A stretch of DNA of 64,000 nucleotides from assembly GCA_021464245.1 (NCBI GenBank), contig JADCRB010000006.1, positions 3,117,621-3,181,620 of the forward strand, in the 5' to 3' direction. The position numbers and the translations under genes were made by a program. A model generated the notes under the pieces. The model was given only the letters and a program-made list of their open reading frames with translations, searched no databases and was not told the DNA's origin. The stretch is from Carallia brachiata. Lineage: Eukaryota > Streptophyta > Magnoliopsida > Malpighiales > Rhizophoraceae. Shown here in pieces: positions 4,306-47,400 of this stretch. Within the stretch, counting starts at the first letter, position 1; every line of letters begins with the position of its first letter.

Positions 4306-6846
4306 AAATTTTAAATTAACCGAATTTCAGTTAATCGAAGTTTCAATTTAGAAACAATTTTTAATTTTGCATAATCAAAAATTTAGTTCATGAACAGTTA
4401 TAGTGATTCAGTTTAGTTAACTTTCTTAACTCATGGCAGCTGCAAATCTATCAAACATTTAACATTGGTTAATTTATGAAAAGAGTAAGATTGAGGCGCT
4501 CAATGAGATATGCGAAAGATATTTTGTTAATATAATAACATCGAATAATTTATTTTTTTTTTTATTTTAAAAATTTCACGATTTAAATCAGTATGTACCT
4601 ATTACGTATTTGCAACTGTGTGACTAAAAAGTTTTTTTGTTCTAGAAAATTCAAAGAAAAAGAAAGAAAAAAAAGCAGAAGAAAGGAGACGAACCCAGCA
4701 ACATTTAACAGTCAGTAAATAGTCCAAGCCAGGATTTAACATTTCACTGTTAGATGCTTAGACCGCTTACTTTACTTTTTAAGGAGTTAGTTACTAGTGG
4801 TGCTCTTCATAGATAGCGGTCTAAACATATATTAACATATTAATTTTTAAATTTTACCTTACAATAAATTATAAATTATATATATTAATCCTATAAATAT
4901 GAGTAATCTAATATATAAATATATTAATACTTATATTTTATATAACATTACATTTTATGTATTAATATTTTATTTATTGTGTATATAAATATTTAATTTT
5001 TTTATATTTATATTAAATATTAATTAAATTAATTAAATTTTAAATGTCTAAATTTTTTAATTTAATGATGGATTTAATGTTTAAAACCTTAACTAGTAAA
5101 TAACTGTTAGAAGGAACCTCTTGCCTCTCGGTGTCGCCAAAGTGTCCCATTATTCCATCCTTATCTACTTCCTGGCCTCTTATTCATTGTCACGTTCCCC
5201 GTTGCATCGACAGGCAAATTTTCGTTGGATAGTTCTTTCCCAAAAATTGTCCACTGTGACACCAAATACTTCATTTTCCTGAAATGGGTCTTTGGGATTC
5301 CCTTCTCAATTGGCTCGGAGGTAACCCTCTTCCTCTACTTTATCATTCTTTCTTTTAGTTTTTTTTTTTTTTTCGTGGGGTTTTCTCCATGTTATATTTC
5401 TCTTAATTCAGTAATTTTTTTTATTGACTCATTCATCCATTAAAAAAAAAAAAAATCCTTCTTTCTGTTTGGTTGCTGAGAAAGTTGTTGGATTGATTTG
5501 CTGGAGTTTAAGAGTCTTCCTTGTGATACAATAGTCGAAAGATGAAATTTAGCTGTGAGAAACAATTTCTAATAGGCGCATGATATAGGGTTAAAGATTT
5601 GCTGATTCTGAACCTCACACCATTCTGTTCAGTTCGTTAAAAAGCAAAGGCAATTTCTAGAGGATACTTATTATTATTCTTATTATTATTATTATTATTA
5701 TGGGCAAGGACTTTGACAATTCATTTCGTTGCTAAGCATGGTTCCGAAACTCGTTTCATTTGTGCTTTATGCTCTAGTTTCTATCTGAGAAGTAAGTTGA
5801 AGACATGTATGACTGGTGTTATTAGGATTTCTTTTCGTTTTTCCTTTGTGTGTGTGCGTGTGTGTGCGCCAGGAAGCTAGTTGGCCATGAGTTACACATC
5901 TCATAAATCTCGTACACTCAATCGAGAATTTGAACATGAGACTTCCAAGATAGATGTTTAGGCCTTTATTTATTGTAATGTCCTCTTGGGACAGTGTGAT
6001 CAGGATTCTATGCAATAAACATAGTTACTCGAAGATTTGGTTCTTGGAAGCTTCATTTAGAGTACTTTCACCAAACTTGGGCCACCTATTTCTCAATCAA
6101 ATGTATGCAGGTTTGAGTTTAAGTGGTTTTTGTAATGAATAAGGGACTTTAATGTTAATTTACTCAACTGGAGTACTGAAGCTTGCACCTTTAGCAACTT
6201 TCTGAGGTTGAGAGTACACGTTGAAAACTTCTCATTTCGATTTCTCGAATGGATTACATGCAACTTGAATGTAGCATGGCAGTGGATCTTCTGATAGATT
6301 CTGTTGCTCATCTCATTATCATTCAAGGATATTTAGATGGGATATTTGCATTTGATTTTGGTGGAAAAATGTTTTAGGTGCTTTGTTAAATGGATAGCCA
6401 AACATTTATATTTTGGTTTTGGGATTCAGCTTAAGATGATGGTAGCAGTGTGAGCAACTTTCGAATGCTTATTTTAACATAGGTACAAATACTGTAGTAT
6501 TTTCTATCTCACATCCATCCAACAGTTATGAAGCTTATACTTATGGGATTGCTTAATGAGTAAATGTTCTCTGTGTGAATCAGTTGCGAGTTTTTTGAGT
6601 TTATGTTATGTTTCTCAAACTGTTTCTAGAGGGAATTGCATGAGCTTGAGGTAAAGATGTTTTAGTCCTCAAAAAGTAAGTAATCTTTTCATTTTTTAGG
6701 AGTTTTCATCTTTTCCCTGTTTCTCTAAGTATATATTTGTTTTATCTTTTCTTTGTCCTTTTATTATCATGGCAGCAGAAAGGACATTTGAAGACAGCAA
6801 TTAAAGAAGAGTCAATTTGCCCAAAACTGCCGTCATTCTGATATCA
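4306..6846. other. Intergenic DNA and F-box gene upstream region
   Basis: 4306-5100 is AT-rich with no recognised feature. 5100-5330 is less AT-rich and ends in a good donor (CGGAG/GTAACC at about 5321), while an acceptor-like CATGGCAGCAG lies near 6778; together they could be a 5'-UTR intron of the F-box gene, but nothing coding proves it. A TTA microsatellite occupies about 5668-5701 and a TG-rich tract about 5846-5868. Small frames here lack coding character. Confidence 0.4.
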
Positions 6847-7911
6847 ATGGAGACCCGCAATGCAGATAATTTGCCTCAAGATGTTATCACTGGGATTCTC
6901 TTGAGGTTACCTGTAAAAAGTCTGGCACGGTTCAAGTGTGTTTCAAAATCTTGGTACGCTATTATCACAAGTCGCGATTTCGTTTACAAGCATCTTGGCA
7001 ACAAAAATGACGGATGTCTTATAGCTCTTTATGCTACTCCTCCATCTGACCCAAATTTAGCTGTGTGGTTCCCTGATAAGACTCTTGCCGACTCATCATA
7101 TCACGCCTTTGAGCTACCATTCTCAAGAGCCATCCTCCATGGTCCTTGTAATGGCATTTTCTTTGTAACCTTTGGTGAACAAGACTATGCTCTATGGAAC
7201 CCAGCAACCAAAGAATATTTAGATCTACCAAGTCCAGCTTTTCCAGTTGGATTTTGTTGGGATGAGTGCTGTGGATTTGGATTGGATCCTGTAACTAGTG
7301 ACTACAAGGTGATAGTCATTCAAAGACTTGAGGAAGAAGATCATTTATTGATAAAGATGCACACATTAGGCACCGATTCCTGGAAAGACTTGGAGCTAGC
7401 TCAATGTGAAAGACTATATGAAAATACATGCGACACATATCTGGACGGAAACTGCTATTGGCGGGGAAGTAAACATGATGTTACAGACATGATCGTCTCC
7501 TTTGACATGGGTAAAGACACATTTAAGGAGATAGGATTGCCGAATTATCCAAAGCCAGCAGTTGATACACTTGCAGTATACAACGACTTGATCGCTTTAT
7601 TCACCTTTCAACCCACGGAAGAACATCTTGATATTTGGGTGCTGAAGGAGGAGTGCTGGACGAAACAAATAACCGTTGGGCCTCTTCCTGGAGTTAAACA
7701 TCCTCTTGGGTATTGGAAGAACGGGGAGCCATTATTGCAGTCCAGTACTAATTGCTTACTTCTATGCGAAACTGCCACTCAAGAAATCAGGGACCTGGGA
7801 TTTCAAGGTACTGATCATTGCATGGGGATTCATGTTTATAAGGAGAGCTTGATTTCGATCAAGGATGAGTGCGAGTACAGACGGCGCAAGGAACATCAAT
7901 CAGCAACGTGA
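6847..7911 (+). CDS. F-box protein with F-box-associated C-terminal domain
   Basis: A single uninterrupted exon of 354 codons, from ATG at 6847 to TGA at 7911. The upstream in-frame extension has no ATG and no domain, so METRNADNLPQDV is taken as the start. Residues about 8-50 form the F-box (LPQDVITGILLRLPVKSL, then CVSKSWYAII), the part that binds SKP1 in SCF ubiquitin ligases. Residues about 95-330 form an F-box-associated (FBA/kelch-like) substrate domain, with GPCNGIFFV, LWNPATKEY and FGLDPVTSDYKV marking the usual blades. Length and layout match the CPR1/At3g23880-like group and the related S-locus F-box proteins; sequence alone does not separate these. The target protein is unknown. 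No lesion is seen. Confidence 0.9.
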   Translation: METRNADNLPQDVITGILLRLPVKSLARFKCVSKSWYAIITSRDFVYKHLGNKNDGCLIALYATPPSDPNLAVWFPDKTLADSSYHAFELPFSRAILHGPCNGIFFVTFGEQDYALWNPATKEYLDLPSPAFPVGFCWDECCGFGLDPVTSDYKVIVIQRLEEEDHLLIKMHTLGTDSWKDLELAQCERLYENTCDTYLDGNCYWRGSKHDVTDMIVSFDMGKDTFKEIGLPNYPKPAVDTLAVYNDLIALFTFQPTEEHLDIWVLKEECWTKQITVGPLPGVKHPLGYWKNGEPLLQSSTNCLLLCETATQEIRDLGFQGTDHCMGIHVYKESLISIKDECEYRRRKEHQSAT

Positions 7912-12290: not shown

Positions 12291-12531
12291 GAGCATTAAT
12301 TGTGATTTTTGTTATTTTTGTTATTTTATTTTATTTTATTTTTATTTTTTTAAGATTTAGCTTAGTTTAGTTTTATTTATTTATTTTAAGTTTTAGTTTA
12401 CTTCTTTATTTCTTTTTCACGATTGTAGGTAGTGCATGCAATTGTGAGCATTTAAGAGCACTAATCTTCTTCCCTTGAACCTCGAGATTAAAAGATTTTG
12501 TCGACAGAACCAGATATTAAATTGCGTAGAG

Positions 12532-15078
12532 ATGACTGAAAGAGTTGGTGACGCGGATGGCAAAGTTATAGAAGAGCAAGTACTTATCAATGGACAAGAG
12601 GTGAGGGAGCGGGATAGAATTAGCATGAAGGACATCCAAAGGCCTGTGATTGGTCCTTCACCATCTTGCATCAGGCTGAGTACAACAGCTTGTAACTACG
12701 AGCTCAAGACCATGTTCTTTAATATATTACCATCGTTTCATGGTCTACCGAGTGAGGATCCACTTACTTTCCTTCGAGACTTCTACAACACGATAGAGAC
12801 TTTTCCTCTCGGGAGATGTTCAGAGGATGAGTTGAAGATGAGATGCTTTCTTTATACCCTCAAAGATAAGGCGAAGAGTTGGCTCATTAATTTTCCAGAG
12901 GGATCACTCATTGCATGGGAGCAAATTTATAACAAGTTTATACTGAAATTTTACTCTCCTCAAAAGACTGCAGAACTCTGAAACAAAATTTGTTCCTTTT
13001 CACAAATGGATGCTGAACCATTTCACGAGGCGTGGGAGAGGTTCAAAATACTTCTAGTGCAGTGCCCACACCATCAATTTTCCAAGCCACTCCAGATGCA
13101 GTTCTTCTACGATGATCTTGTTAGCAATTCTCAGATGTTAGTGGATTCAGCAGCCAGAGGTTATATGGGTAATAAGTCAGCAGATGAGCTGTATGATATT
13201 TATGAGTTGCTGGCAGATAACTCGCAGCAAAAAGCTATTAGAAGGCATAGAGCTGGAGCTTATGAGATATCTTAACATGTTGACGTGGCATCAAAGATAG
13301 ACGACTTGTCTCGTCAAGTACAGTTATTGTTAAGCAGAGACTTGGTAGAGAGGGAACAATGCTCTTACTGTGGACGTTTTGGACACATCGAAGCTACTTA
13401 CACAGGTAGAGACTTAGCCAAGTCAGTGGAAGAGATTAATTATGCTGAAACTTATGCTGGAGAACAGCAGAGAAATGACTCATACTCTAACACCTATAAC
13501 CTGGGATGGCGTAACCATCCAAATTTTGACTGGAAGGAGCAGGGAAATACAAGGCAAGTAATACCACCAGGGTTTCAGCAACCGAGACCCCAATTTCATA
13601 GTCAACCATCTCAACCTCAGGAGAAAAAGCCACAGATAGAAGGCATGTTCATGCAGTACATGTCAAAGATGGATGAGAGAATGACACAACAGGATGCTGA
13701 GTTGAGGAAATTGAATGTAAAAATTGATCAAGTTGCATTCACTCACCAAGCCTCGATTCATACTTTGGAAGTACAGGTGGGTCAACTTGGCAAAGCAATT
13801 TCGACTAGAAATCAAGGTCAACTCCCTAGTAATACTGAGGTGAATCCAAAGGAGAGTGTCTTAGCCATTATATTGAGAAGTGGGAACGTGGTAGGAAATC
13901 CTGACGATGTTCAACAAAATTACAAGCCCATAGAAGATGGTGGCAAAGAGGAGGAACTTATGCAAGAGAAAGCTACGGATGATGAACAAGAAGGGTAGGA
14001 CAACATTGAGGAGCTAGTGCCACCCACGCCTCCCCCACAAGTCAAACCATATGTTCTGCCAATCCCATTTCCCAACAGGCTGAAGAAGAGGAATGAGGAC
14101 AAGAACTTTCTTAAGTTTTTGGACATATTTAAGAAGATCCACATCAACATTCCTTTTGCAGAGGCAATTGCACAGATGCCAAATTATGCAAAATTCCTGA
14201 AGGAGATCATATCGAACAAGAGGAAATTTGAGGAGCACACTACAGTTACCTTAACTAAAAAGTGTAGTGCTATTCTTCAGAATAAACTATCTCTAAAGTT
14301 AAAGAATCCAGAGAGTTTTACTATCCCTTGCACCATTGGTAGTTTAGGTATTGAACATTGTTTGTGTGACTTAGGTGCAAGCATTAATTTGATGCCTTTA
14401 TCGCTTTTTAGGAGGCTGAAGATAGGAGAATTGGAGCCAACCTCAGTGTCCTTTCAACTGGCTGATCGGTCCATCAAGTATCCATATGGAAAGATTGAAG
14501 ATGTGCTAGTTAAAGTGGGAAAGTTCTATTTCCCAGCTGATTTCTTAGTTCTGGATATGGACAAAGATGTAGACATCCCAATAATCTTAGGGAAGCCATT
14601 CCTAACCACTGGTAAGACCCTCATCGATGTAAAACAAGGAAAGCTGACATTCCGGGTAGGAAAGAAAGAACATGTATTCAACGTGTTCAAAGTATTAAAG
14701 AGTTCATCACTACATGATACATGCTTAATGATGGAAACATCAAAGCCACCCAAAGAACACCCAAAGAGAATGGATATAGACTTGGGAAGTGCACTTGAGA
14801 TGTTATTTGAGCAACCTCTCCTAGCGGCAAAGTCGAGCTCAAAACTTTCCATTGCGAAGTTGGCTCCTTTTGAGCTTAAACAACCTTCTCTCCCTTTAGA
14901 GCACAATTATATGGGAAGCGACTTTAAGGAGGGAGAGAAAGTACTTCTCTATAATGCCTACAGTGGAACAATCCCGTGGAAACGAAAGAAAAAAAAAGTT
15001 ATTGGGACCATTCACAGTGCACAAAGTGTATCCTCAAGGGGCGATCGGTATTTGGAGCAAGAAGTTTGGGGTGATTAA
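12532..15078 (+). pseudogene. gag-protease polyprotein of the LTR element, three in-frame stops
   Basis: One continuous frame from ATG 12532 to TAG near 15078, broken only by stops at 12979 (TGA), 13273 (TAA) and 13996 (TAG). Residues up to about 250 are the retrotransposon gag domain (DPLTFLRDFYNTIETF, then MDAEPFHEAWERFK). A zinc knuckle follows (CSYCGRFGHIEATY) in which the last cysteine is tyrosine. A proline/glutamine-rich linker and an MDERMTQQDAELRKL helix lead to the aspartic protease with DLGASINLMP at 14368-14397 and IILGKPFL as the flap/ILG motif. Past about 14900 the frame runs into integrase-tail sequence. No frameshifts occur before that point. Each stop is one C-to-T change from Arg or Gln codons. 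Confidence 0.88.
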
Positions 15079-20272: not shown

Positions 20273-22224
20273 ATGGGGAGAAAGCCGTGTTGTGACAAAG
20301 TTGGGTTGAAGAAAGGGCCGTGGACAGCAGATGAGGATAGGAAACTCATCAACTTCATCCTGACTAACGGCCAATGCTGCTGGAGAGCTCTTCCTAAACT
20401 TGCAGGTCTCCACATCATCCATTTCCATTTCTCTCATTACATTTCAAAGAAGAGAGAAATTTTTGAGACTACCTTTGGCTAAGATGTATATCTGCAGTCT
20501 TAATTAGTCTGCTCTGTCCTTCTCTAGTTGATCTTCTCTTTTCTTGAAGTTTAAGAGACTTAAATTGTTTAAGAGTTGATTTTTTCTTTTCCATAACAAT
20601 CATTAAGGGGGAATGCCTGAAAGGTCACTAAATGTGAATTGCAAGAGATCATAATGGGCATCCATTTTTTTGCTTATTTGGCAAATATGACCAAAGAAAA
20701 TTGCAGGCTTCTATCTTAAAAATATTTTGTTCTTCGAATCTTTTCCCTTTGATTTGTTTGTGACTGGGGCGATGGTGGCTGTCACTGCAGGATTGTTAAG
20801 ATGTGGGAAGAGTTGCAGGCTGAGATGGACAAACTATCTAAGGCCAGATTTGAAGAGAGGTCTTTTAACAGAAAATGAAGAGAAAACGGTCATTGATCTC
20901 CACGCCCGACATGGCAACAGGTTGCTTACCTTCTTCATTCTGCACCATATTTGGTCACTGTCTATGTCTCTGTCTCTCCCTTTTTCAAGTTTATTAATTC
21001 TTCCGTACTAAGCATCTTCCATTTACTTGATCCGGTTACAAAAAAAGTTTAAGAGCCTCCGACAAATGTCTTGACAAATGTCTCAATTTTTATAAAAAAA
21101 TAATTAATTATTAAATTTTTATAATTATCGTGATAAAAAAATAATAAAAAATAAAATAATAATTTATATTTTAATTATTTTGTTATTCTTTTTATTAATA
21201 AAATTATAAAAATTAATAATTAATTATTTTTTATATCCATGTCGAGATAAAACTTGGGGACTATTGTTTGGGGCGCCTAAACCAGGTTACAAAAAAAACC
21301 ATCTCCTTTGGAGTGGTCCCACGTACTCTCATTTTGAAATGAGAAATATTTGGTAGAATCAAAGTAATAGTTGTTGAATGATTAAATTTAGAAAAAAATA
21401 ATAATAATTGGATGTTATATTTTAGTATTATTTAATGTATAATTATGTAGTAAAATTCTTTTGAAAATTTACAACATGTTTTTCATCATTACTTTTTTAA
21501 TCAATCAATTTGTTAAAGTCTATGTACGAGCATTACATTGTTAATTGACAGATGGTCTAAGATAGCATCTCATCTCCCTGGAAGAACTGATAATGAAATC
21601 AAGAACCATTGGAACACTCACATCAAGAAAAAGCTAAGAAAAATGGGCATTGATCCTCTCACCCACCAGCCACTATCCACTTCTGAAGGGTCATCACCTC
21701 CACAAGAACAAGTGGAAAATCAAGCAGAGGATGAACAGGGACAAAAGCAATATTGTTCGGCTAATGCCATCTCTGATCAATTGGACCAAACTAAGGAAAT
21801 TGAACTTGTACTTGAAGCATCTTCAAAATCAACTATCAATGAGGGCAAAGAGGAAGACAATAGCTTGACAAGCACACTTGAAAAAATTGAGCTAATGAAT
21901 GAGTTTAGCATAGATGATGTGCCATTAATTGAACTACATGAAGTGTTGGTCCCCAGTGAACCTTCCTCATCAACCTGTCCATCTTCTTCTTCTTCTTCTT
22001 ATGGCTTAAACAATGTCGTTGAGCTTGAAGACTTGCAATTCCCAGATTTGGAGTGGCCTAACCATGACATTGACCTCTGGGCTGATGACTTGAGTAGTTG
22101 GGATTTGCTAATCAATGGTGCTGATAGTGACAGAAAGATGGCAACTACTTTTAATCCTGTTTTAACAGGTCAGAGCCCAAGAATGGCTTTGGATGAAGAT
22201 TCTTGGGCATATGGGTTATTGTGA
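20273..22224 (+). CDS. R2R3-MYB transcription factor, MYB20/43/85 type
   Basis: Three exons: 20273-20405, 20791-20920 and 21552-22224, with GT-AG introns at the positions conserved in R2R3-MYB genes (after LPKLAG and within GNR/W). The product is 311 residues. It starts [18 protein letters not shown]2 spans about 13-63 with its three regular tryptophans, and R3 about 64-116 ending [16 protein letters not shown]. The next segment, KMGIDPLTH, is typical of the Arabidopsis MYB20/42/43/85 group, which activates secondary-wall, lignin and phenylalanine pathway genes (family knowledge; its role here is inferred). The bHLH-binding signature of anthocyanin MYBs is absent. The C-terminal half is acidic with a serine run at about 225-240 and a final acidic/tryptophan motif. 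No lesion is seen. Confidence 0.93.
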
Positions 22225-32928: not shown

Positions 32929-35900
32929 TTAGCTTGACCTGACGATAATTTCTTGTTTCATGGCAAGGGACAGAGCACCAAGATTGCCTCCGCTCTCCAC
33001 TCTAACTCCAGGCATCGCAGTAGCTCTGCTCCCAACAAACCCACCTTCCCCAACTTTTTATTTTCCCAAACTTCACTTTCCTTCCTTCGCCCTCATATAT
33101 ATGTCCAAACAGCAGAGCCTCTCTTCCCACGCACCCACCTCCCTCAATCTCCACCATCTCCGGATAGAGCTCCCGTGCTATCTACGTAAGTCCCTCGCTC
33201 CAAATCAACGTTTGATCCCATCAGTTTTATCCACAACATAAATAACACAGATCCGCTCGTCATCTCCATGAAATATTCACCAACCAATGTTCTAAAAGCC
33301 TGCCGCACTGTGTCCAAGAAGACCTCTTTGCTCCAAATCATTGCCGTCTCGCCTTCCTTCTTCTTTCCCACGAGGACCCATTTGGCCACAACACAGGCTA
33401 AGGCAGCTAGAATCCCGGAAGACAACCACCACAGAGGAAGCAACCAATATATAGTGGCACTGGCAATTCATCAATATTCCTGCTTTCCTTTAAGGAAAGA
33501 ACCCAATTCAGTGGAGCAATGATTGACAAACCCGTGAGAAAATATGGAATCAGTGTTTGAAGCAGTGGCTGAACAAAAATGGCCCAGAAGGTCTGTTTCC
33601 AAGTCCTTGCTAGAGTCACTTTTCCTCCCGAGTCGTTTTTCCCCATTGGAGGAGCCGCGGCCATTGGACAGCCAGAGAGGTCCACCTTAACGTCTGATTG
33701 CTCTATGAACATTCTCCAGGCCTCCGGAAGCGGCTTCCCATTTCTCAAGTGCTGACAAATCTCATAGATCAAGGAACGACCGTGATCAATGGAAGCACTC
33801 TGGGAGCATGATGTTGCCCGAATAACATCCACCTCTTGGCACCGTCTATACAGATTGAAGTCTAATCCTTCTGCCTCTTTGCTGCTGAGATTTTCATCTA
33901 TTACTATCTCTCCTATGTCAATGTAAGGAAATTCAGCCTCATCCCACGCTTTTGAGCAGTCAAGCGCAGCATCACAAGCAGACTCATCGCTGGGAACCGG
34001 GCGGAATTGTAGTTGGAAGATGTAGCGAACCCCTCCGGGAGAACTTACACGGTGTTGGAAGTCTTCAGCGAGGAATAATAAGGGGCGAGTGTCTTTATCA
34101 TCCCTCGGAATTGCACCTGTCTCTGGCGGCAGAATTCCAACAGGTTCCACCTTACCAGAATCCTCGCTGATGTTAGCATCATAAGGCCGCGGCTTGAATT
34201 TCACATACATCTCCCGTCCGTCAGTGAAGCGGAGAAGCCTACAAATATTTGAGTAGTAATGTAGTTCTGCATAACAGTCAGCATTGCGTAGAGACGTCCA
34301 AACTGCATCGCGTATATGTGGGGCTCGCTTCACCTGATCCTCCCTTGCAGGAAGCCCACATACTAGCCATGTTGCGAAGTCTGCAATTGTGCGGGCGTAG
34401 AATGCTTTGCCTGTTTTCAGTGTGAGGTCAAGGAGTGGAGACAATTCATTTGAGAGTATTCTTATAGATGCGCCGCGTGCATCTATCCTTGCATCATCAT
34501 CGGCACTTAAGTTGTTGCTATGTCTAATTAACAAAGGATACTGCTTCCCAGCACAAAAGATTTTGTGCTCCGGAAATCCATTGATGTTGTCAAATATTTT
34601 CAGGTATCCCTTCCCAGCAACACCAATTCGATGGAAGTACCTTGATTTCACGTTCAAAGTAGTGGCAGCCAAACTTGCAGCCAGGTTGCCAACGATCTTC
34701 TTGTACTTGATGTCCATCTCTTCTATCCTGTCATCCAGAGCATTCATGGTGTTCTTAATCATGATTGGATTTTGGGATCCAATGTAGACGCCGCCCTTTC
34801 TAAGAATTGAATTCACTGGAGCGACTGAAAGAGCCCCAAGTATTGCATCTTTTTCAAGAACTGAACCAGGAAGGACAAGACTTTGACTTCCAAGCACCGA
34901 ATTATCCTGCACCTCTACTTTACCCCGAGTGAACCCACTGGATGAATAGAACCCTGCAATTATCCTGCTGAAATCACCAAGGCGAACTCCATTCCCAATT
35001 GTGATCAATTTTGGATCTGAAACGGGGATAATGGCCCTGATAGAACAATGTTTCTTGACGTTTGCTCCCAAAAGCGCAAGTAAATGCAGAAGGCTTCTGT
35101 TCCAGACAAGAATTTGGCAAACCTGAGATGGCAGGCAATGGTAATCCAGTAGCGAAGCCATGCTTTTAGATGTAACTGCTTTTCCTCTTTGTCATCAGCA
35201 AGAAAATGGGACAATGTGCAGGTAAAGAAGCAGAATATCAGACCATGAGCTAAATAAGCAGCCGCAACAAAGATTGCAAAGCTAGCTGGGTTTGATGGGG
35301 CAGTTGCACATGCTGTGGCATATGCAATGATTGCCAGTGGCATCCAATGGAAGGCTCCAGAGATGCAAAGGAATGAGAAGTTTTTTTATGGAAGCACTTT
35401 CTTGAAATAGCCAAAGGTAAAGGGCGTAGACAATGGCTGCCGATAGACTACTGAGGAGACCAACCATGTAAATGCCCATAAAATGGCAACCAGCCCTTTT
35501 CCCTGTTATCTTACTACTTGGTAGGACACTACCCTGCAAAAATTGTGGAGTACAAACACATCACACATCAAGTTAAAAATTTCTTAGATGTATGGTAAAA
35601 TTTATACAGTCAATGCAAGTGTTGCAGTCATTGCCAATTATGCAAAGGTTGCACACTCAAAATTAATGTTAACACATTTGTCTGACACAAATTTTCTCAT
35701 AGATAGATTCTTGTTTCACTTGCAACCAATACTTCTTTACTAGAATCTTCTTTGCCAAATGAATAAGAGCTCAGTGCTTGGTGCAGTTTAAAGTTTGTGA
35801 ATGGATAAATTAACAATACCAATCATATCATTGTGGCAAAATACCAGTGGTGGATCATATGAATTGGAAACTCTAAAGGACTTGCTTGTGATAACTGTGA

Positions 35901-38900
35901 ATCTTGCTGCATTTGAATACGGGGTTGCGTTCTGCACTCTTCTGCAAGGATGCTACATCAGCCTCTTCTCCAATTATGCTCCCTTTCTGGACTACAGCAT
36001 ATGGGCCAATTGAAGAATTGCGGCCAATCCTAATAGGGAGGAAGCTCAAAATTCCATTTCTCATCTCATGACCTTGGATCAATGGCCCTTCTGCAATCAC
36101 AGCTCCATCTCCAATTGAAACTAGATATGGGCCTGTAATATTAACAGTATCGAGCAAAACTGATGATCCAATCCTGGCTCCAAACATCTCGAACCAGTAA
36201 TTAAGAAACACAGTTCCTTTCAAATGCTCTGCAAAAACTTTGGAAGAAATGTCTTGGCCCTTGTAGAGTGCCCACCACCTAACAAAATCCATAGACCAGA
36301 TGGAGATTTTGGGGGTCAGTCCATAGTTTGGCCTCAAGAAAGATTTTCCAAAGAAAGCAATGCAAATACATGTAGAAGCCATGCAAAGAACCCAAGCAAG
36401 AGGAGCGAAGGCCAAGGAAGCCACACATTCCATCCATGGAATTCCCCTTGTGAAGAAATGACTGGCCGAGACCAGGCTTGCAAAAGCAGAAACTGACATA
36501 TAAGCTGGAAAGATGAGCATGCTGCAGACACAAATGACTGCAAGAAGATGGCAAAGCCGTATTTGCATTTGGTGGATCCTGGAAATTTCTGTCACCAACT
36601 CCACCGTTGTGTCCATATTTGTTTCGGGAAGATAGGAGGTAGAATTCAAGGTCTGAGGTTGAGACTTCATTGCAAGATTCTCTGAGAAGCTTGCCACATC
36701 TGAGATGCAGGTTGCAGTGAAGATATCCACTGCTCCAACTGGCACTCCAAGAAAATCTGAAAGTTTTTGCGCTGCTCTGACTACGCCGATGGAGTCAGTT
36801 CCATATGAAACTAGATTCTCGGTGGCAGAGATATTCTTGACAGGGATTCCTGTTTGCCCGGAAACAAGCCCCCTTAGGAACTCCACAATTTCTTGATAAC
36901 TAAATCTGGAATTTGGTGAAAGAGAGTTCATAGGCTGAGGTTGTGGTGTGCTTCTCTCCTTATAGGTTCCAGTGGTGAACGACCTGAACAATTTGCGCTT
37001 ATTGGGCAAAACTGGATTTGGGACTATGTTCAAAGTTCCATCTATAAAATTTTTCAGGCACTCGAATCACTTGATTTTACCGGATGTTGTTTTACTAAAA
37101 GTCCTGGGCTTGATCAGCTTGACACAAGCCACTGTAACACCATGTTCTTCAACAACATGGTTCTTAATTTGATCAACAATATCCTTGTCAACATGCTTAT
37201 CGTCTCTAACCTCTGCAATTACGACCAGGCCAACTTGGTCAGAACCATCTGGAACTGAAATCCCTTTTGCTGACAAGACTTCTTCTGGAACACCAATGAC
37301 TGCACAACAACCTGGACTTAGAAGTTCAGATGAACTCTCGACTGTCTTTTCAACATCAGCTGAGTAGATGTTCTTTCCTGCCAGTATGATCAGATCCTTA
37401 ATTCTGCCAGTGATAAACAATTTCCCATCAATAACTCGTCCCAAATCTCCAGTTCTAGTGTATGTTCTTCCAGGGTAATCTTGGAGCACATTTCCAAAAG
37501 TTTTATGGGCGAGTTCTTCTCTACCCCAATACCCAATTCCGGAGCTTGGGCCGCTTATCCATATCTCTCCTTCTTTTCCCTCTTCTTTAAGCTCTTTCAC
37601 CAGCCTCTGGATCCACTATTCTGATGTCAACATCTGCATTGTCTGGATTCACGTATCCACAACATACTCGGCTTTGCCAATCAATCAAGATTGGCTTACC
37701 CTCTCCATATGCACAGCTGACAAACACACAGTCCTCGGCCAAACCGTAGCCAGGAGCCATCACCTCTTGAGAGAGGCCAAAGGGACGAGTAAGCTCAATG
37801 AATTTTTTCAGTGTTTTCTGCCTCACTGGTTCAGCAGCAACCATGAGGAAAATCATGGATGAGAGGTCGTAATTTTGAGTCTTTTCCTTGTTAGCCTCTA
37901 GTCTTCGAACAACTAGCTCAAAAGCAAAGTTGGGGCCAGCACTGTGAGTATCCTGGTATTTGCTTATAGTCTCTAGCCATAATAGAGGGTTCTTGATAAA
38001 AGTCATCGGGGAAAACAAAATTGCCGAGCCACCACTAACAAGAGCGGTAAAAAGTCCACCAATTAGGCCCATATCGTGGTACTGAGGAAGCCAGCTTACC
38101 AGTACTGTATTTGAGGTGCTTCTATATCTCCTCCTCATCAGCTTCACATTGTGAACGAGGCCACCATGGGTTATCATGACACCTTTAGCATCACCAGTTG
38201 AGCCTGATGTAAATTGCAGAAAGCATAAATCATTAGGCAAAGCTTCACATTCATAATCTACGGAGTCTGGAAGCAATTCTTTGCAGTTCTTGGTCCATGA
38301 ATCTGTATGTAGCCACGGAAGATTAGGCCAGCGAGCTGAAATTTTCCCCTTTTTGCTATTCAACGGTAACAAATTCTTCAAAGAACCAGCCCGAACTGCT
38401 GAATGATAAATGGTGGTTGATAGAATAGCAACTGCATTACAAGATTTAGCAATATTTTCAATCTTCATAAGGGCTTGGTGGCTTCTTTGCAAAGGATCCG
38501 GTGCAAGTACAGGGACTGGTAAGACTTTGGCTCTCAAGCACCCAAAGAATGCATCAATGAATTCCAGACCAGGTCCATGGACTAGAAGGACCCTGTCGCC
38601 AGGCTTGATAACTGGCTTTTGGCTTGTCAAGAGCTTATGAACAATGCAAGAAGCATTGGCATGAAGGTCTTTGTACGTCCTGTGGCACACTACTGACCCT
38701 CCCTCATTGATCCAAGTGTAGAGTGTTTTGTTATGTGTTGCTCTATGAGTTCCCCAGTACTTCAAATAACCGTCGAGAGTGGACAGATCTGCAAACTCCA
38801 CTCCTGGCATTTCTCCAAGTTCATTCGGACTTCTGTCCCAGGATTTTGAATGAAATGAAAACAAATTCTGCAATACCGTATCCCACAATTAAGTGCAGTT

Positions 38901-40778
38901 TTAACTTTTAAGCTGCTAACATTAACCCATCTAATTCAAGCATTATTTTTGTAACAGACGAATAATTAACGTGCCAAATTACCTTTACATATGGAAATGT
39001 TGGGGAAGAATTGTTATTTGAAAAGTGCTTGCAAATCAGAGCCATGGCATACGATGAGATTCTCTCTGTGAGCTCAAATGCCATAAGCCCACCAACGTAG
39101 TAAGTGTTATTCTGACCTTGAAGTTTAGACTCCAATCTCTCGAAGAATCCACCTTTCATATCTTTATCATATGTTTTCCAAAGAAGAAATTTAAAATTAT
39201 TTTTGAAAAAAAAAGAAAAAAAAAACACAGATTAAGATCCTTCAGTTATTGGGTTCAGTGTTGGAAAAGTATATTTGGGGCATACCTTGGCTACCAACAT
39301 GAGGAAAGTATTTGAATTTTCGTTGAAAGACCACCTTTTCAACTTCTGCCCCCATATTCTTAACTGCTTTGATCGCAAGCTCAGTAATTGTTGGTCCCCT
39401 TATATTGGTAGAGTTCCCGAATGACCAGAACAAGAAGATGTTAGTATCAACATAAAATAGATGTTAGTATCAACATAAAATATGTGCATTACAATTGGAT
39501 GTCCCATTTTTGCAGGATCATCCATATGTTCACCAAAGTAATAAAAGCCTATTGGCATGCCATCTAGCCCTTTAATCTGCAAGACCGTAGTGTAGTAGTC
39601 AATTGTTTGAACTTTACTGAACAATTCTCTTTCAAGCTCAGTGAGGTTGATTACCTCCACCTCAGTTTCTGCAATAAGAATGGCACGTTGGATACCTCTC
39701 TGATATGGCTGGGAGGGAAAATGAAAAAGGTTCAACGTCTGGAGCAAAACAATAAAGAAACCTGTAGAAGTTGCATCTAGTGATCCGTAAGTTCGTCCAT
39801 TCTTGAAAGGTAAGGCACCAGAGATGATTATTTTATCGAACTCCATAGCTTCAACTTCTCCCCTACTATTTCTGATATCAACACTAACAGCCGCAGAATC
39901 GCGTCTGACTGCCAGAACTTCAGTTTTGCAATGAACTTTGATGGAAGTGATTCTGCAATCTTCTGCCAAACACTAGCATATCCGCCCTTGAAGCGTCCTA
40001 TCTTTCCCGCCATGGAAGTCCTAGTAAACTCATGAGTGTAGGCATAAGGCATGTCTTGGACAAATCCATAACCATAAGCAGTGTATCCATAAGCCACAGA
40101 TTTGGGAACAGATTTGACCCCATGATTCTCAAGATAAGCAGGAGCTAAGTCTGAAGCAAGTTCGCTCACAGCATGGACTCCAATTCGACCTGAATTCTTT
40201 GCTTGATCCTGCAAACAGCAACATGGAAAAATTTGAATTGATAAGCAAGGCTGAGGCTTCCAGAAAATGTAAAGGGGATAATAAAAACTAGACCTGAAGT
40301 TCTAAGGTCAATGAGATTATAGATAGATAATCTTCTACAACTTTGAGGTCCTCATATTTTCCTGTTGAGCTATCAAGCAGGGCAAGCTTGTACGAGTTTA
40401 CTTCCTCCAATTCTGATCGAGCAATCCTTTGCTAAGTGAAAGATGACTGGTGCACTGTTCTCGGCAAGAACTTGAGCACCGACATCATAAATTCTTCCTA
40501 TAGATATTTGGAAATTTTTTAGGAATCTTGGCATCGCAAAGCTCATAAGAAGACGCATACAAGGTGTATTTTGTACCTTCGATTTCAACTGATACACACA
40601 TGCCGCCGACAGTATGACACTTCTCGAATACGGTCACATTATGGTAACCAAGCTTAGCCAGTGCATAAGCAGCAGATAAGCCACTTGGACCTGCTCCAAC
40701 TATCGCGATTCTTGTGTTCACAGGGAGGCAAGGATGTAGGTTGTAAAATTGATCCTCCACTGGAATTGTTGTGTCCAT
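32929..40778 (-). pseudogene. FAD oxidoreductase / FAAL adenylation / carrier / acyltransferase-like fusion gene, disrupted
   Basis: Seven exons on the minus strand: 40778-40577, 40497-40294, 40208-39762, 39668-39286, 39161-38983, 38867-35882 and 35533-32929, all with GT-AG borders, about 2,330 codons. Residues 1 to about 440 are an FAD/NAD(P)-binding amine-oxidase-like domain (VGAGPSGLSAAYAL near the start). Next comes an acyl/aminoacyl adenylation domain of FAAL type: FTSGSTGDAKGVMITHGG, YGLAEDC, then TGDLGRV and GRIKDLIILAGKN. A carrier domain follows with YGTDSIGVV, whose Ser would take phosphopantetheine. The rest has about six membrane spans and hexapeptide-rich beta-helix segments (IGDGAVIAEGPLI, IGNGVRLGDFS), like the terminal domain of bacterial non-ribosomal peptide synthetases. 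Such a protein could activate a fatty or amino acid, load it on a carrier, oxidise it and transfer it; the product is unknown. Lesions: shifts near 40415, 39935, 37594, 35384, 35072, 33450, 33165 and 33055, a 23-bp duplication, and TGA at 37067-37069. Confidence 0.82.
39436..39481. repeat. 23-bp tandem duplication in exon 4 of the fusion gene
   Basis: Two exact copies of a 23-bp unit (AGATGTTAGTATCAAC...) lie back to back inside the FAD-domain coding sequence. 23 is not a multiple of three, so the frame shifts; coding resumes in the expected frame on the far side when one copy is disregarded. Confidence 0.92.
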
Positions 40779-42186: not shown

Positions 42187-42384
<198 letters not shown>

Positions 42385-44452: not shown

Positions 44453-47400
44453 TCAACAGAGCTCCGTCTTGATCTCTGAACTCTGATCGCCACTATATTC
44501 TATACCATTTATCTGGTTATTAGTTGAAGAAGAAATAGTTCCCCCATTGTAGCCATCCATTAGCAACTTCCTTATCTTTGATCTCCACTCCGACCGTTCC
44601 TTTTCATTCTTCCTGTCATGCACAACTCTATCACGATAGTTTAGCATAGATCCTAAACCAGTATTGGGTGTCCAACCATACATCGTCAACACCTGTGCTT
44701 CGCCTTCACTTAAGTCTTCTCCAACCTGGCCAGACAACCAAAAATGCATTAGATGCAAAAATAGACTGGTCAAAAGGCAATGAAGAAAATTATCACATTC
44801 AGGGAGCAAGTAATCGATATACAAAGAGAAATTAAAATTCTATTGTTCCAAAACATGCAGAAATCACAATCATATGTAGGAAAATCTAACGGATATCAAG
44901 AGTGTTCAGAGAGACCTATCATATGCAGTGCATGATCATATGACATAATCAAGGCAACAACAAAATTAAAATTGAAAAGATATCCTGGATTATGTAGCAT
45001 GAAATTAAAATCTATCCAAAATTACTTCCAAGCATATCCTCATTGTACAGAAGCATTCAAAATGGAATTGCTTTTGCAAAAATGATTTAATAATTTCCTG
45101 ACAACAAAAGATCACCAATTGCATTCATGGTTACTGACTAAGTAGGTAAACAAGATCAAATAGATACCGTTACTTAACCTCTTTCAACGGAAGGTGAGCC
45201 ATGGTGAAATGGTAAGGGTTACTCCATTGTGACCCAGAGGCAGCTTTTTTGCAAAAACAAAGATAAGATTGCGTACAATTAGTCATTTCCTAGAACCTAC
45301 CATGCACTAGTACTCAACCTGTTCCCATCGTTTATTATTCTTTGATTCATTTCAACTTTGGAATATCACAGAAGAGGCAATCATCATTACATTGACATGG
45401 TTTGTTAAGTCGGTGCTTCTTCATTGGAAACCCAAACTAAACAGAACCTTCTTCGAAGTTGGTATGTGTAAACATGCATGGCTCTATTGATACAGATAAT
45501 CAAGCGCACTGCTCAGTTGCAGCTCAAGCTGGTTAACTTGTTAATATACTTATCAACATCATTCATCAGCTCCAGACACTGAAATATATATATCTGAACA
45601 GTTTAATTTTAGATGGGATTCTATGCATGTACATTAAACTTAGAAATGGGCATAAATCATGTTAAAAAGTACTCCAACAAAAGTTTGAAACCTTGACCCT
45701 TGACCGGAGATATGAAAATGCAAGAATTTTTGACCAACATAAAAAGCAATAAAAACCAAAGCAAACAAATTTTGTTCTATTTCATTGGCTTAATTGAAGA
45801 ACAATAATGTGGTTTGCTGTAGACTCTTTTCAAAATAACCTCCAGTTGAAAGTTTGGATTCTTGAAAATGGACCATGCCGATCCTGAAATTGTTTATTCG
45901 GCTCATGCACAGGCATGTTATGGGTACTATGGAAAACACTCATGCAGCAATGCAGGAAGTCAATCAGCAAGATAAACATGTATAAAGCTTTAAGATAATG
46001 AAGGGATGCAATTGTTCTAATCTACCTAACAGCACCCCTCAAACACAATAAGTTAAATCATTACCAATAAAGCTTTGTTCTCAATGATGGAAATCCTGCC
46101 ACAGCTAGTAAGTTTCATGGCAGTCATCAAACGCTTGATCTGCCAGTTAATGGGTAAGGAATCCAGCAGCTCAAAGAAATATGTTGCATACCCATATTCA
46201 GGACGTTCCAGTACTATTCTGCATTTAGGTTAAACTACATATCACTTCTTTTCTGGCAAAGCGCAAAAAATCTGAAACTAAAAGGACTAGTTCTTTTCAA
46301 GAAAGCACCTATTATGCCTTTCGAAGACAAATATAAACGATTGGAGATCTCGGCACCAACCCCATTCAGCAGGCCAGTTACGAAACTGCAGATATCTTGT
46401 CTGAAGAAGACGAGGAATTAACAAATCATAATTATGGAACTTCAGAGCGAATGCAATGATACAGAGAAACTTCTTAAAACACTATTGAATTTATTTAAAA
46501 ATAATGAAAAATAGATACCATACTTAAAATTTATAAACTCATTCTTGAGCTTCCAAACTCAGGTCATAAATCAAGTGGAAAACCTATTTTTTCGGTTACC
46601 TAGAATATCATAGTAGTCAAATCTAATTCACAAATCCACTTTACTATATCAAAGTACAAAGTCACATTGAACTTGTTACCTGCTCCACCAATGAGAACAG
46701 ACAATCCAAGCAATAATTGGGCTTTGAAGCCTTCGTACACCGCATAGGAGCAAGCTTCAGTATGGCGCTACGCTGGGCAAAAAGCTGTGCTAGAAAGACA
46801 GAAACATGCTGACATCACATAAAGCTGTTCATTTGCAAAGCACAGCATGTCTTCCAAAACTTTTACAAAAAAAAAAAAAAGAGTGTAATGATAATTCATG
46901 CTAATAAATCTTGCAAACAAAAACCCAAAGACAATTTTTTGAACCATCACAACATCTTATATAGAATGTACTTGTGAGACCTGCTACAATGACAAAATTC
47001 ATAGGTTGCGTGTGTTGTAAGCATTGTTTGCAAATATATCATTTTCAAATGGAAACATGTTTTCCATCCAAAACTGTGATTTTTGGGAGTCTCCAGTGAC
47101 CAAAGAATTTTTAATTGATTATGTAATGAAAGTGCTAGATAAAAGGATCAGGTATTGTTCGAGTTAAAAGAAGATGATACCATTGTCAACAGAATCCAAA
47201 ATTGGACCACAGATGAACAAAATTATCAAATATTGGACACCAGGGTGCCAGAAACCGTAGCTGACCTTTGACATTATTGCTTCAAGCTCTGTAAAGCTGT
47301 CTTCGATGAATGATTCATCTATGGCTTCATCAATCTCTGTCTCTCCATAAAGTTTGATTTCATTTAACACTACACCTTGTTCAATTAAGACCTAATAACA

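What the first reader, a model, noticed from the sequence alone, without database searches (positions are those of the whole stretch)
32929..40778. NRPS/FAAL-style multidomain enzyme gene in a plant chromosome
Seven exons encode, in one chain, an FAD-dependent oxidoreductase, a fatty-acyl-AMP-ligase-like adenylation domain, a phosphopantetheine carrier domain and a membrane-spanning beta-helix terminal domain resembling the bacterial NRPS terminal domain. Visible motifs: GAGPSGLSAAYAL, TSGSTGDAKG, GRIKDLI, YGTDSIGVV and hexapeptide repeats. Free-standing carrier-linked assembly-line enzymes are rare in plants. The fused N-terminal oxidase suggests a lipid or acyl-amino-acid product made at a membrane. 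The chain could descend from ancient horizontal transfer followed by intron gain. That it is intron-containing and multi-exon rules out bacterial contamination.
Basis: partly seen in the sequence, partly recalled or inferred. Interest (0 to 1): 0.88.

Follow-up and report, generated by a model that had tools for sequence, protein, structure and literature searches.

The report
Broken copy of plant lipid megaenzyme

Summary
The seven-exon minus-strand gene (40778-32929) is real, with six GT-AG introns, but broken here: one in-frame stop, about nine frame breaks (one a 23-bp tandem duplication), and 31 of 592 otherwise invariant residues changed. Full-length relatives are widespread: the 120 best hits of 480, in magnoliids and eudicots where named, all match every domain. 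Order in the full chain: FAD domain (isomerase-like), fatty-acyl-AMP-ligase-like domain, carrier, then three membrane/beta-helix units of Pls type with the heme domain before the third. The architecture is in print (eLife 2021, function unknown) and very probably equals rice DWA1 (PNAS 2013; not held, content recalled), a wax/drought gene that a 2025 paper counts among 75 mycorrhiza-associated genes. Not met in my paper searches: the same ligase, heme, FAD and carrier domains form one set in actinobacteria, and share one chain in a metagenomic protein. The window copy groups with Erythroxylum (Malpighiales) and is probably a young pseudogene. Likely function of full-length members, inferred: load a fatty acid on the carrier, remodel it oxidatively, pass it to an acceptor at a membrane.

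The parts
40577..40778 (-). exon 1, FAD-binding start (GAGPSGL)
   Evidence: Pfam NAD_binding_8 1.4e-12; GT-AG intron follows
40294..40497 (-). exon 2, FAD domain; frame break near 40420
   Evidence: tblastn with Hevea orthologue P0001
39762..40208 (-). exon 3, FAD domain; frame break near 39943
39286..39668 (-). exon 4, FAD domain; holds a 23-bp tandem duplication near 39458 that shifts the frame
   Evidence: seen directly in the sequence; frame change
38983..39161 (-). exon 5, end of FAD domain
   Evidence: orthologue P0001 residues 18-450 match PDB 2b9w, E 1.7e-25
35882..38867 (-). exon 6: ligase, carrier, first membrane/beta-helix unit; frame break near 37600, in-frame stop near 37068
37020..38800 (-). 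fatty-acyl-AMP-ligase-like adenylation domain (ends approximate)
   Evidence: PF00501 2.2e-49; NCBIfam fatty-acid--AMP ligase models
36650..36925 (-). phosphopantetheine carrier domain, GTDSIG (ends approximate)
   Evidence: PF00550 4.2e-11
35940..36575 (-). terminal unit 1: two membrane segments + beta-helix (ends approximate)
   Evidence: TIGR02353 4.8e-21; hydropathy and repeat comparison on orthologues
32929..35533 (-). exon 7: terminal unit 2, heme domain, terminal unit 3; frame breaks near 35380, 35090, 33440, 33175, 33060
   Evidence: stop TAA at 32931-32929
34685..35500 (-). terminal unit 2: membrane segments + beta-helix (ends approximate)
   Evidence: TIGR02353 1.2e-07
33737..34669 (-). 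catalase-related (coral allene-oxide-synthase-type) heme domain
   Evidence: PDB 1u5u E 9.1e-31; Pfam Catalase 4e-6
32945..33615 (-). terminal unit 3: two membrane segments + beta-helix (ends approximate)

Best explanation
The locus is a recently inactivated orthologue of an angiosperm lipid megaenzyme, very probably the family of rice DWA1. SHOWN by sequence: full-length members are single chains of about 2,300 aa in the order FAD - ligase - carrier - terminal unit 1 - unit 2 - heme domain - unit 3, with FAD motif, adenylation and carrier residues and heme ligands conserved. INFERRED mechanism of working members: the ligase domain adenylates a long-chain fatty acid and loads it on its own carrier arm; the FAD domain (isomerase-like) and the heme domain (allene-oxide-synthase-like) move double bonds or remodel an oxygenated chain; the membrane-embedded Pls-type units pass the acyl group from the carrier to an amine or hydroxyl acceptor, releasing a modified acyl lipid at a membrane. 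The window copy cannot make this protein.
For: Domains. All seven HMM segments in 120 of the 120 listed hits; the HMMs were built from 29 of these and the three terminal-unit HMMs cross-match. Key residues invariant in 29 of 29 aligned orthologues and kept in the broken copy. Heme set in the 224 of 240 proteins with a long enough match: R64 219, H67 220, R102 220, R349 222, Y353 223, R360 223. Model of the 433-aa plant protein P0203 (mean pLDDT 80.9) matches 1u5u and 3dy5 first, rmsd 2.9. Three terminal units alike at 95-97% hhalign probability, each after membrane segments. Bacterial co-occurrence of ligase, heme, FAD and carrier. Broken state; 31/592 changes at otherwise invariant sites against at most 16/636 in any of 29 orthologues. 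DWA1: passages of PMC5408081 and PMC12529035.
Against: Rice DWA1 is not named among the 120 listed hits and its paper is not held, so orthology rests on recalled domain content. [quoted passage not shown] the plant domain is also shorter where bacterial FAALs seem to carry their specific insert (35 against 50 residues; place of the insert inferred). Two distal residues of coral allene oxide synthase differ (T66 to F, N137 to K, each in 220 of 224), so the activity may be another or none. No lipoxygenase match in the chain. Some breaks could be assembly errors: no reads were available, and two nearby uninterrupted frames (1.8 kb together) would be expected about 8% of the time even if errors were equally dense (my arithmetic).
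Confidence: 0.8

Rival explanations
1. The gene is intact and the breaks are assembly or consensus errors.
For: At least one break lies at a homopolymer run (near 35380); all key residues checked are kept; the window branch is only moderately long (0.24 against 0.18 in Erythroxylum).
Against: A 23-bp tandem duplication and a nonsense codon are not typical indel errors; substitutions at invariant sites, which indel errors do not explain, are twice the highest orthologue (5.24% against 2.52%); a 368-aa F-box frame and a 235-aa MYB frame in the same window are uninterrupted.
Confidence: 0.15
2. Working members make acyl-CoA or a wax precursor directly, and the heme and FAD parts are structural or detoxifying (catalase-like) only.
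For: A review passage reports DWA1 as forming acyl-CoAs and raising very-long-chain fatty acids; Pfam calls the domain Catalase.
Against: Carrier serine invariant in 29 of 29; heme domain far closer to allene oxide synthase than to catalases (9e-31 against about 0.1), with Thr66 and Asn137, which catalase shares, replaced; FAD, heme and carrier domains recur in one protein in bacteria, beside or fused to a ligase.
Confidence: 0.2
3. The chain is an ordinary amino-acid NRPS-like reductase or peptide synthetase.
For: Some records are named L-2-aminoadipate reductase or NRPS-like; the top NCBIfam row is an NRPS/PKS model, over its first ligase and carrier domains.
Against: Fatty-acid--AMP ligase models score far above the amino-acid adenylation model (up to 296 against 132 bits); no condensation domain among the 14 Pfam families of P0001.
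Confidence: 0.05

Closest known systems
Rice DWA1 (Zhu and Xiong, PNAS 2013; not held, content recalled; passages about it read in PMC5408081, PMC12529035, PMC5249095)
   Same: Recalled as a 2,391-aa megaenzyme with oxidoreductase-like, NRPS-like and allene-oxide-synthase-like parts; described in PMC5408081 as having an AMP-binding domain for long-chain fatty acids.
   Different: Window copy is broken and from a Malpighiales-like plant; orthology to rice not tested by sequence.
Plant FAAL-like proteins between HemY and catalase domains (eLife 2021, PMC8460268, passages read)
   Same: Same outer architecture, function stated as unknown.
   Different: Not in the passages read: Pls-type repeats, allene-oxide-synthase affinity of the 'catalase', isomerase affinity of 'HemY', the bacterial heme-FAD counterpart. 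The main text does not mention DWA1.
Actinobacterial heme-FAD-carrier(-thioesterase) proteins (P0241 and relatives) and the metagenomic chain P0302
   Same: Heme, FAD, carrier and ligase domains as one set.
   Different: Other order (P0302: ligase-heme-FAD-carrier), thioesterase or thioester reductase at the end; no Pls-type unit in L036, P0302, P0312, P0241, P0284, P0261 or P0270.
Coral allene oxide synthase (Plexaura homomalla, 1u5u/3dy5)
   Same: Fold and heme ligands.
   Different: T66 and N137 replaced; no lipoxygenase match in the plant chain.
PDB 2b9w (PDB name 'putative aminooxidase'; recalled as P. acnes polyunsaturated fatty acid isomerase)
   Same: Match over residues 18-450 of P0001, E 1.7e-25.
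   Different: Free-standing; substrate of the plant domain unknown.
Pls/PosA terminal domain (TIGR02353)
   Same: Three matched stretches, repeated membrane/beta-helix units.
   Different: 179 bits against a cut-off of 423; heme domain inserted before unit 3; ligase is FAAL-like (that Pls activates lysine is recalled).

Membership tests
DWA1-type plant megaenzyme | Single chain with oxidoreductase, NRPS-like and allene-oxide-synthase-like parts (definition recalled) | tested here: met
   All seven HMM segments in 120 of 120 listed hits; same segments in order in the window
DWA1-type plant megaenzyme | Orthology to the rice DWA1 sequence | not tested
   No rice protein named in the 120 listed hits; paper not held
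DWA1-type plant megaenzyme | Open reading frame (working gene) in the window | tested here: not met
   Stop and about nine frame breaks
Fatty-acyl-AMP ligase (FAAL) | Closest to FAALs within the adenylating superfamily | tested here: met
   NCBIfam fatty-acid--AMP ligase models far above acyl-CoA and amino-acid models; PDB hits named FadD32, FadD23, FadD28 and fatty acyl-adenylate ligase among the best; the very top rows are named polyketide synthase and saframycin synthetase B (recalled as FAALs)
Fatty-acyl-AMP ligase (FAAL) | FAAL-specific insertion of full length | tested here: inconclusive
   Spacing 35 residues in 87 of 90 plant proteins against 50 in 29 of 32 bacterial frames; 30 of 120 and 56 of 88 did not match the motif pair and were not counted
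Fatty-acyl-AMP ligase (FAAL) | Rejects CoA, loads carrier | not testable with these tools
   Biochemistry needed
Catalase-related allene oxide synthase | Sequence and fold closer to it than to catalase | tested here: met
   E 9e-31 against about 0.1; Foldseek 1.7e-26 against 1.2e-17 for the best catalase
Catalase-related allene oxide synthase | Proximal Tyr353, distal His67, Arg64/102/360 | tested here: met
   219-223 of 224; 16 of 240 left out for a short or absent match; roles from passages of PMC5617202
Catalase-related allene oxide synthase | Distal Thr66 and Asn137 | tested here: not met
   F and K in 220 of 224 each
Pls/PosA terminal domain | Curated score cut-off of TIGR02353 | tested here: not met
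   179.1 bits, cut-off 423.1
Pls/PosA terminal domain | Repeated membrane + beta-helix units | tested here: met
Arbuscular-mycorrhiza-associated gene | Lost in non-host plants | not testable with these tools
   Stated for the 75-gene set that includes DWA1 (PMC12529035 passages); host status of the window's plant unknown

The most novel reading that the evidence does not exclude
The plant megaenzyme is a bacterial-type lipid assembly line (ligase + carrier + fatty-acid-isomerase-like flavoprotein + hydroperoxide-type heme enzyme + membrane acyltransferase) acquired early by plants, making one oxidised acyl lipid used both at the cuticle and in mycorrhizal symbiosis; the window shows its loss in a Malpighiales lineage (near Erythroxylum, perhaps Rhizophoraceae) that gave up the symbiosis, and the actinobacterial clusters found here hold the key to its chemistry.
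Probability: 0.2. Interest if true: 0.75.

Novelty: new member of a known kind. Interest (0 to 1): 0.4.

Why it matters
As a gene in this window it matters little: a decayed copy of a known family. What matters is the full-length family. The FAAL literature (eLife 2021) presents these plant proteins as uncharacterised and its main text does not mention DWA1, while the rice wax/drought and mycorrhiza literatures know DWA1. Beyond the acyl-CoA formation ascribed to its AMP-binding domain, no product is named in the passages I read. The domain assignments predict a carrier-bound, isomerised or oxidised fatty acyl chain handed to an acceptor at a membrane, and point to actinobacterial gene clusters in which related chemistry could be solved in an easier host.

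Tried and rejected
Rejected: amino-acid NRPS (no condensation domain in Pfam; FAAL models score better); true catalase; separate neighbouring genes; bacterial contamination (six GT-AG introns).

Led nowhere: genome scan with the heme + beta-helix part (34 pattern matches, none confirmed); protein search with the same part (152 hits, 120 listed; every listed row with an organism name is a plant, many rows have none; 32 not shown); first structure model (mean pLDDT 62.6; its fold search, ranks coral allene oxide synthase first but with poor superposition, so weak evidence); paper searches on FadD28 in crops, on the FAAL/heme pair, on Pls in plants and on catalase-related fusions gave no paper that I could tie to this gene from their listings. 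The FAAL tree with all 84 rows (plant group with the heme-FAD-linked ligases at SH-aLRT 90) warned of long branches meeting; the smaller mixture-model tree keeps the grouping at 85/80. None of the 80 bacterial loci matched a Pls-type unit, so the source of that part is open.

Conflicts: PMC5408081 says DWA1 orthologues are in all selected gymnosperms and angiosperms, whereas the mycorrhiza set is defined by absence in non-hosts; PMC12529035 also reports DWA1 kept in Sarraceniaceae, in which symbiosis genes otherwise tended to be undetected, so the symbiosis link is not tight.
Full report
1. What is in the sequence. On the minus strand, seven exons run from an ATG at 40778 to a TAA at 32929; all six introns begin GT and end AG and are 79-348 nt long. 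Pfam and NCBIfam find an FAD-binding start, an AMP-binding domain, a carrier domain and Pls/PosA-type terminal segments.

2. The copy is broken. An in-frame stop sits near 37068 and about nine frame breaks fall inside exons, one caused by a 23-bp tandem duplication and two in exon 7 compensating each other. At columns invariant in all 29 aligned orthologues the window chain differs at 31 of 592; when each orthologue is tested against the other 28, the worst is 16 of 636. All 19 key positions checked, 17 of them catalytic or cofactor positions and two (F1754, K1832) the plant-specific heme-pocket substitutions, still agree with the orthologues, so the decay looks recent. A 368-aa F-box frame and a 235-aa MYB frame in the same window are uninterrupted. 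Reads were not available, so some breaks may be errors. A tree of 28 chains (27 of the 120 listed hits plus the window) puts the window beside Erythroxylum (SH-aLRT 99), in a group of nine rows made of eight Malpighiales and the window. Rhizophoraceae lies in the same order, its nearness to Erythroxylaceae is recalled; it and other families were not sampled.

3. Full-length relatives. The read-through found 480 proteins at E <= 1e-3; the 120 listed are 2,018-2,483 aa and 64-74% identical, and 120 of 120 match FAD, ligase, carrier, three terminal and heme HMMs built here from 29 of them; the three terminal HMMs cross-match one another. Four (P0029, P0051, P0052, P0093; 2306-2323 aa) are on contigs of at most 7.3-7.6 kb, so without room for introns, probably transcripts (inference).

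4. Each part. (a) FAD domain, residues 18-450 of Hevea P0001: best solved structure 2b9w (E 1.7e-25), named 'putative aminooxidase'; that this is the P. acnes polyunsaturated fatty acid isomerase is recalled. (b) Ligase: NCBIfam fatty-acid--AMP ligase models and PDB entries named FadD32, FadD23 and FadD28 are among the best matches; the top rows are an NRPS/PKS model (NCBIfam) and chains named polyketide synthase and saframycin synthetase B (PDB), recalled as FAALs. The stretch between the GYGxAE and VDP motifs is 35 residues in 87 of 90 matching plant proteins against 50 in 29 of 32 matching bacterial frames (30 of 120 and 56 of 88 did not match the motif pair). (c) Carrier serine invariant, 29 of 29. 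(d) Terminal units: averaged hydropathy shows membrane segments before each of three beta-helix units (two, three and two; the same threshold also flags a few stretches inside the ligase, carrier and unit 2), and the units resemble each other at 95-97% probability; TIGR02353 matches in three stretches but below its cut-off. (e) Heme domain, inserted before unit 3: of the 240 proteins listed (plants or unnamed), 224 had a long enough match; proximal Tyr353 223, distal His67 220, Arg64 219, Arg102 220, Arg349 222, Arg360 223, but Thr66 is Phe in 220 and Asn137 is Lys in 220. Residue roles come from passages of PMC5617202 (that of Arg349 is recalled), which also say that Asn137 supports binding more than catalysis, that coral allene oxide synthase does not scavenge hydrogen peroxide, and yet that the Capnella enzyme showed marked catalase activity. 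A model of the 433-aa plant protein P0203 (mean pLDDT 80.9; mostly 85-98 over residues 11-360) matches 1u5u at rmsd 2.9 and ranks it first, above all catalases.

5. A bacterial counterpart. A scan of genome contigs with the plant ligase-carrier part gave 177 relatives, of which 80 loci were kept. By the HMMs made here only one of the 80, Streptomyces phyllanthi L036, carries more of the set: a 654-aa ligase gene followed by a protein with heme (own HMM, 20 + 117 bits; Pfam does not call it), FAD, carrier and thioesterase domains, then a gene with NMO and FabD-insert matches, which I read as PfaD-like. A protein search with its heme-FAD part found 72 relatives; every row with an organism name is an actinobacterium. 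56 of 72 had a long enough heme match: the residue before the distal histidine is Phe in 40 of 56, and Asn137 is kept in 44 of 56. P0302, an unnamed jgi protein that begins inside its ligase, has ligase, heme, FAD, carrier and thioester reductase in one chain (carrier and reductase by the precomputed Pfam list). The plant ligases group with the three ligases linked to heme-FAD pairs (L036, P0302, P0312) at support 85/80: suggestive, not shown. None of the 80 loci matched a Pls-type unit.

6. Already known. eLife 2021 (PMC8460268, passages read) reports plant FAAL-like domains between HemY and catalase domains, of unknown function, as to its knowledge the first report. Rice DWA1 (Zhu and Xiong 2013) is listed as a fatty acyl-AMP ligase in PMC5408081 (passages); I recall its abstract as a 2,391-aa protein with oxidoreductase-like, NRPS-like and allene-oxide-synthase-like parts. 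The paper is not held, so I did not see it. PMC5408081 says that its AMP-binding domain makes acyl-CoAs from long-chain fatty acids, that overexpression raises very-long-chain fatty acids and drought tolerance, and that ABA raises its expression up to 4.9-fold. PMC12529035 (passages) has DWA1 among 75 symbiosis genes taken largely from a phylogenomic study of arbuscular mycorrhiza, yet finds it kept in Sarraceniaceae, where most others were undetected. The bacterial heme-FAD-carrier set did not appear as such in the listings of my paper searches; those libraries hold open-licence papers only.

7. How it most likely works. Inferred from the parts: fatty acid activation by the ligase, loading on the carrier, isomerisation and oxidative remodelling by the FAD and heme domains, and transfer to an acceptor by the membrane units. 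Which acceptor and which chain are open. The change of both distal pocket residues makes classical allene oxide formation uncertain; hydroperoxide isomerisation, lyase or epoxide chemistry are alternatives.

8. Verdict. A real, well-read gene, but a broken copy of a known and widespread plant family. Interest is moderate and lies in the refined domain assignments, the bacterial counterpart and the link between the FAAL and DWA1 literatures.

Noticed in passing
window 6805-7911 (+): Uninterrupted 368-aa F-box frame with F-box-associated domain.
   Followed up: partly
window 21517-22224 (+): 235-aa frame with a MYB DNA-binding match, probably a last exon.
   Followed up: partly
window 12448-15078 (+): Remains of what looks like an LTR retrotransposon: weak gag and aspartyl protease matches, both below Pfam's cut-offs, in separate frames.
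   Followed up: partly
window 42190-42360: Long GA-rich dinucleotide repeat about 1.4 kb upstream of the gene's start.
   Followed up: no
window 44453-44839 (-): 128-aa frame without a Pfam match that reads like an exon of another gene.
   Followed up: no
L036:2693-10040: Streptomyces phyllanthi cluster with FAAL, heme-FAD-carrier-thioesterase protein and a PfaD-like gene; some relatives of the second protein add a cytochrome P450. Product not looked up.
   Followed up: partly
P0195, P0200, P0209 (plant proteins): Several plant heme-domain gene models are named 'linolenate 9R-lipoxygenase-like' although their listed Pfam domain is Catalase only, probably by analogy with a bacterial fusion protein (inference).
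   Followed up: no
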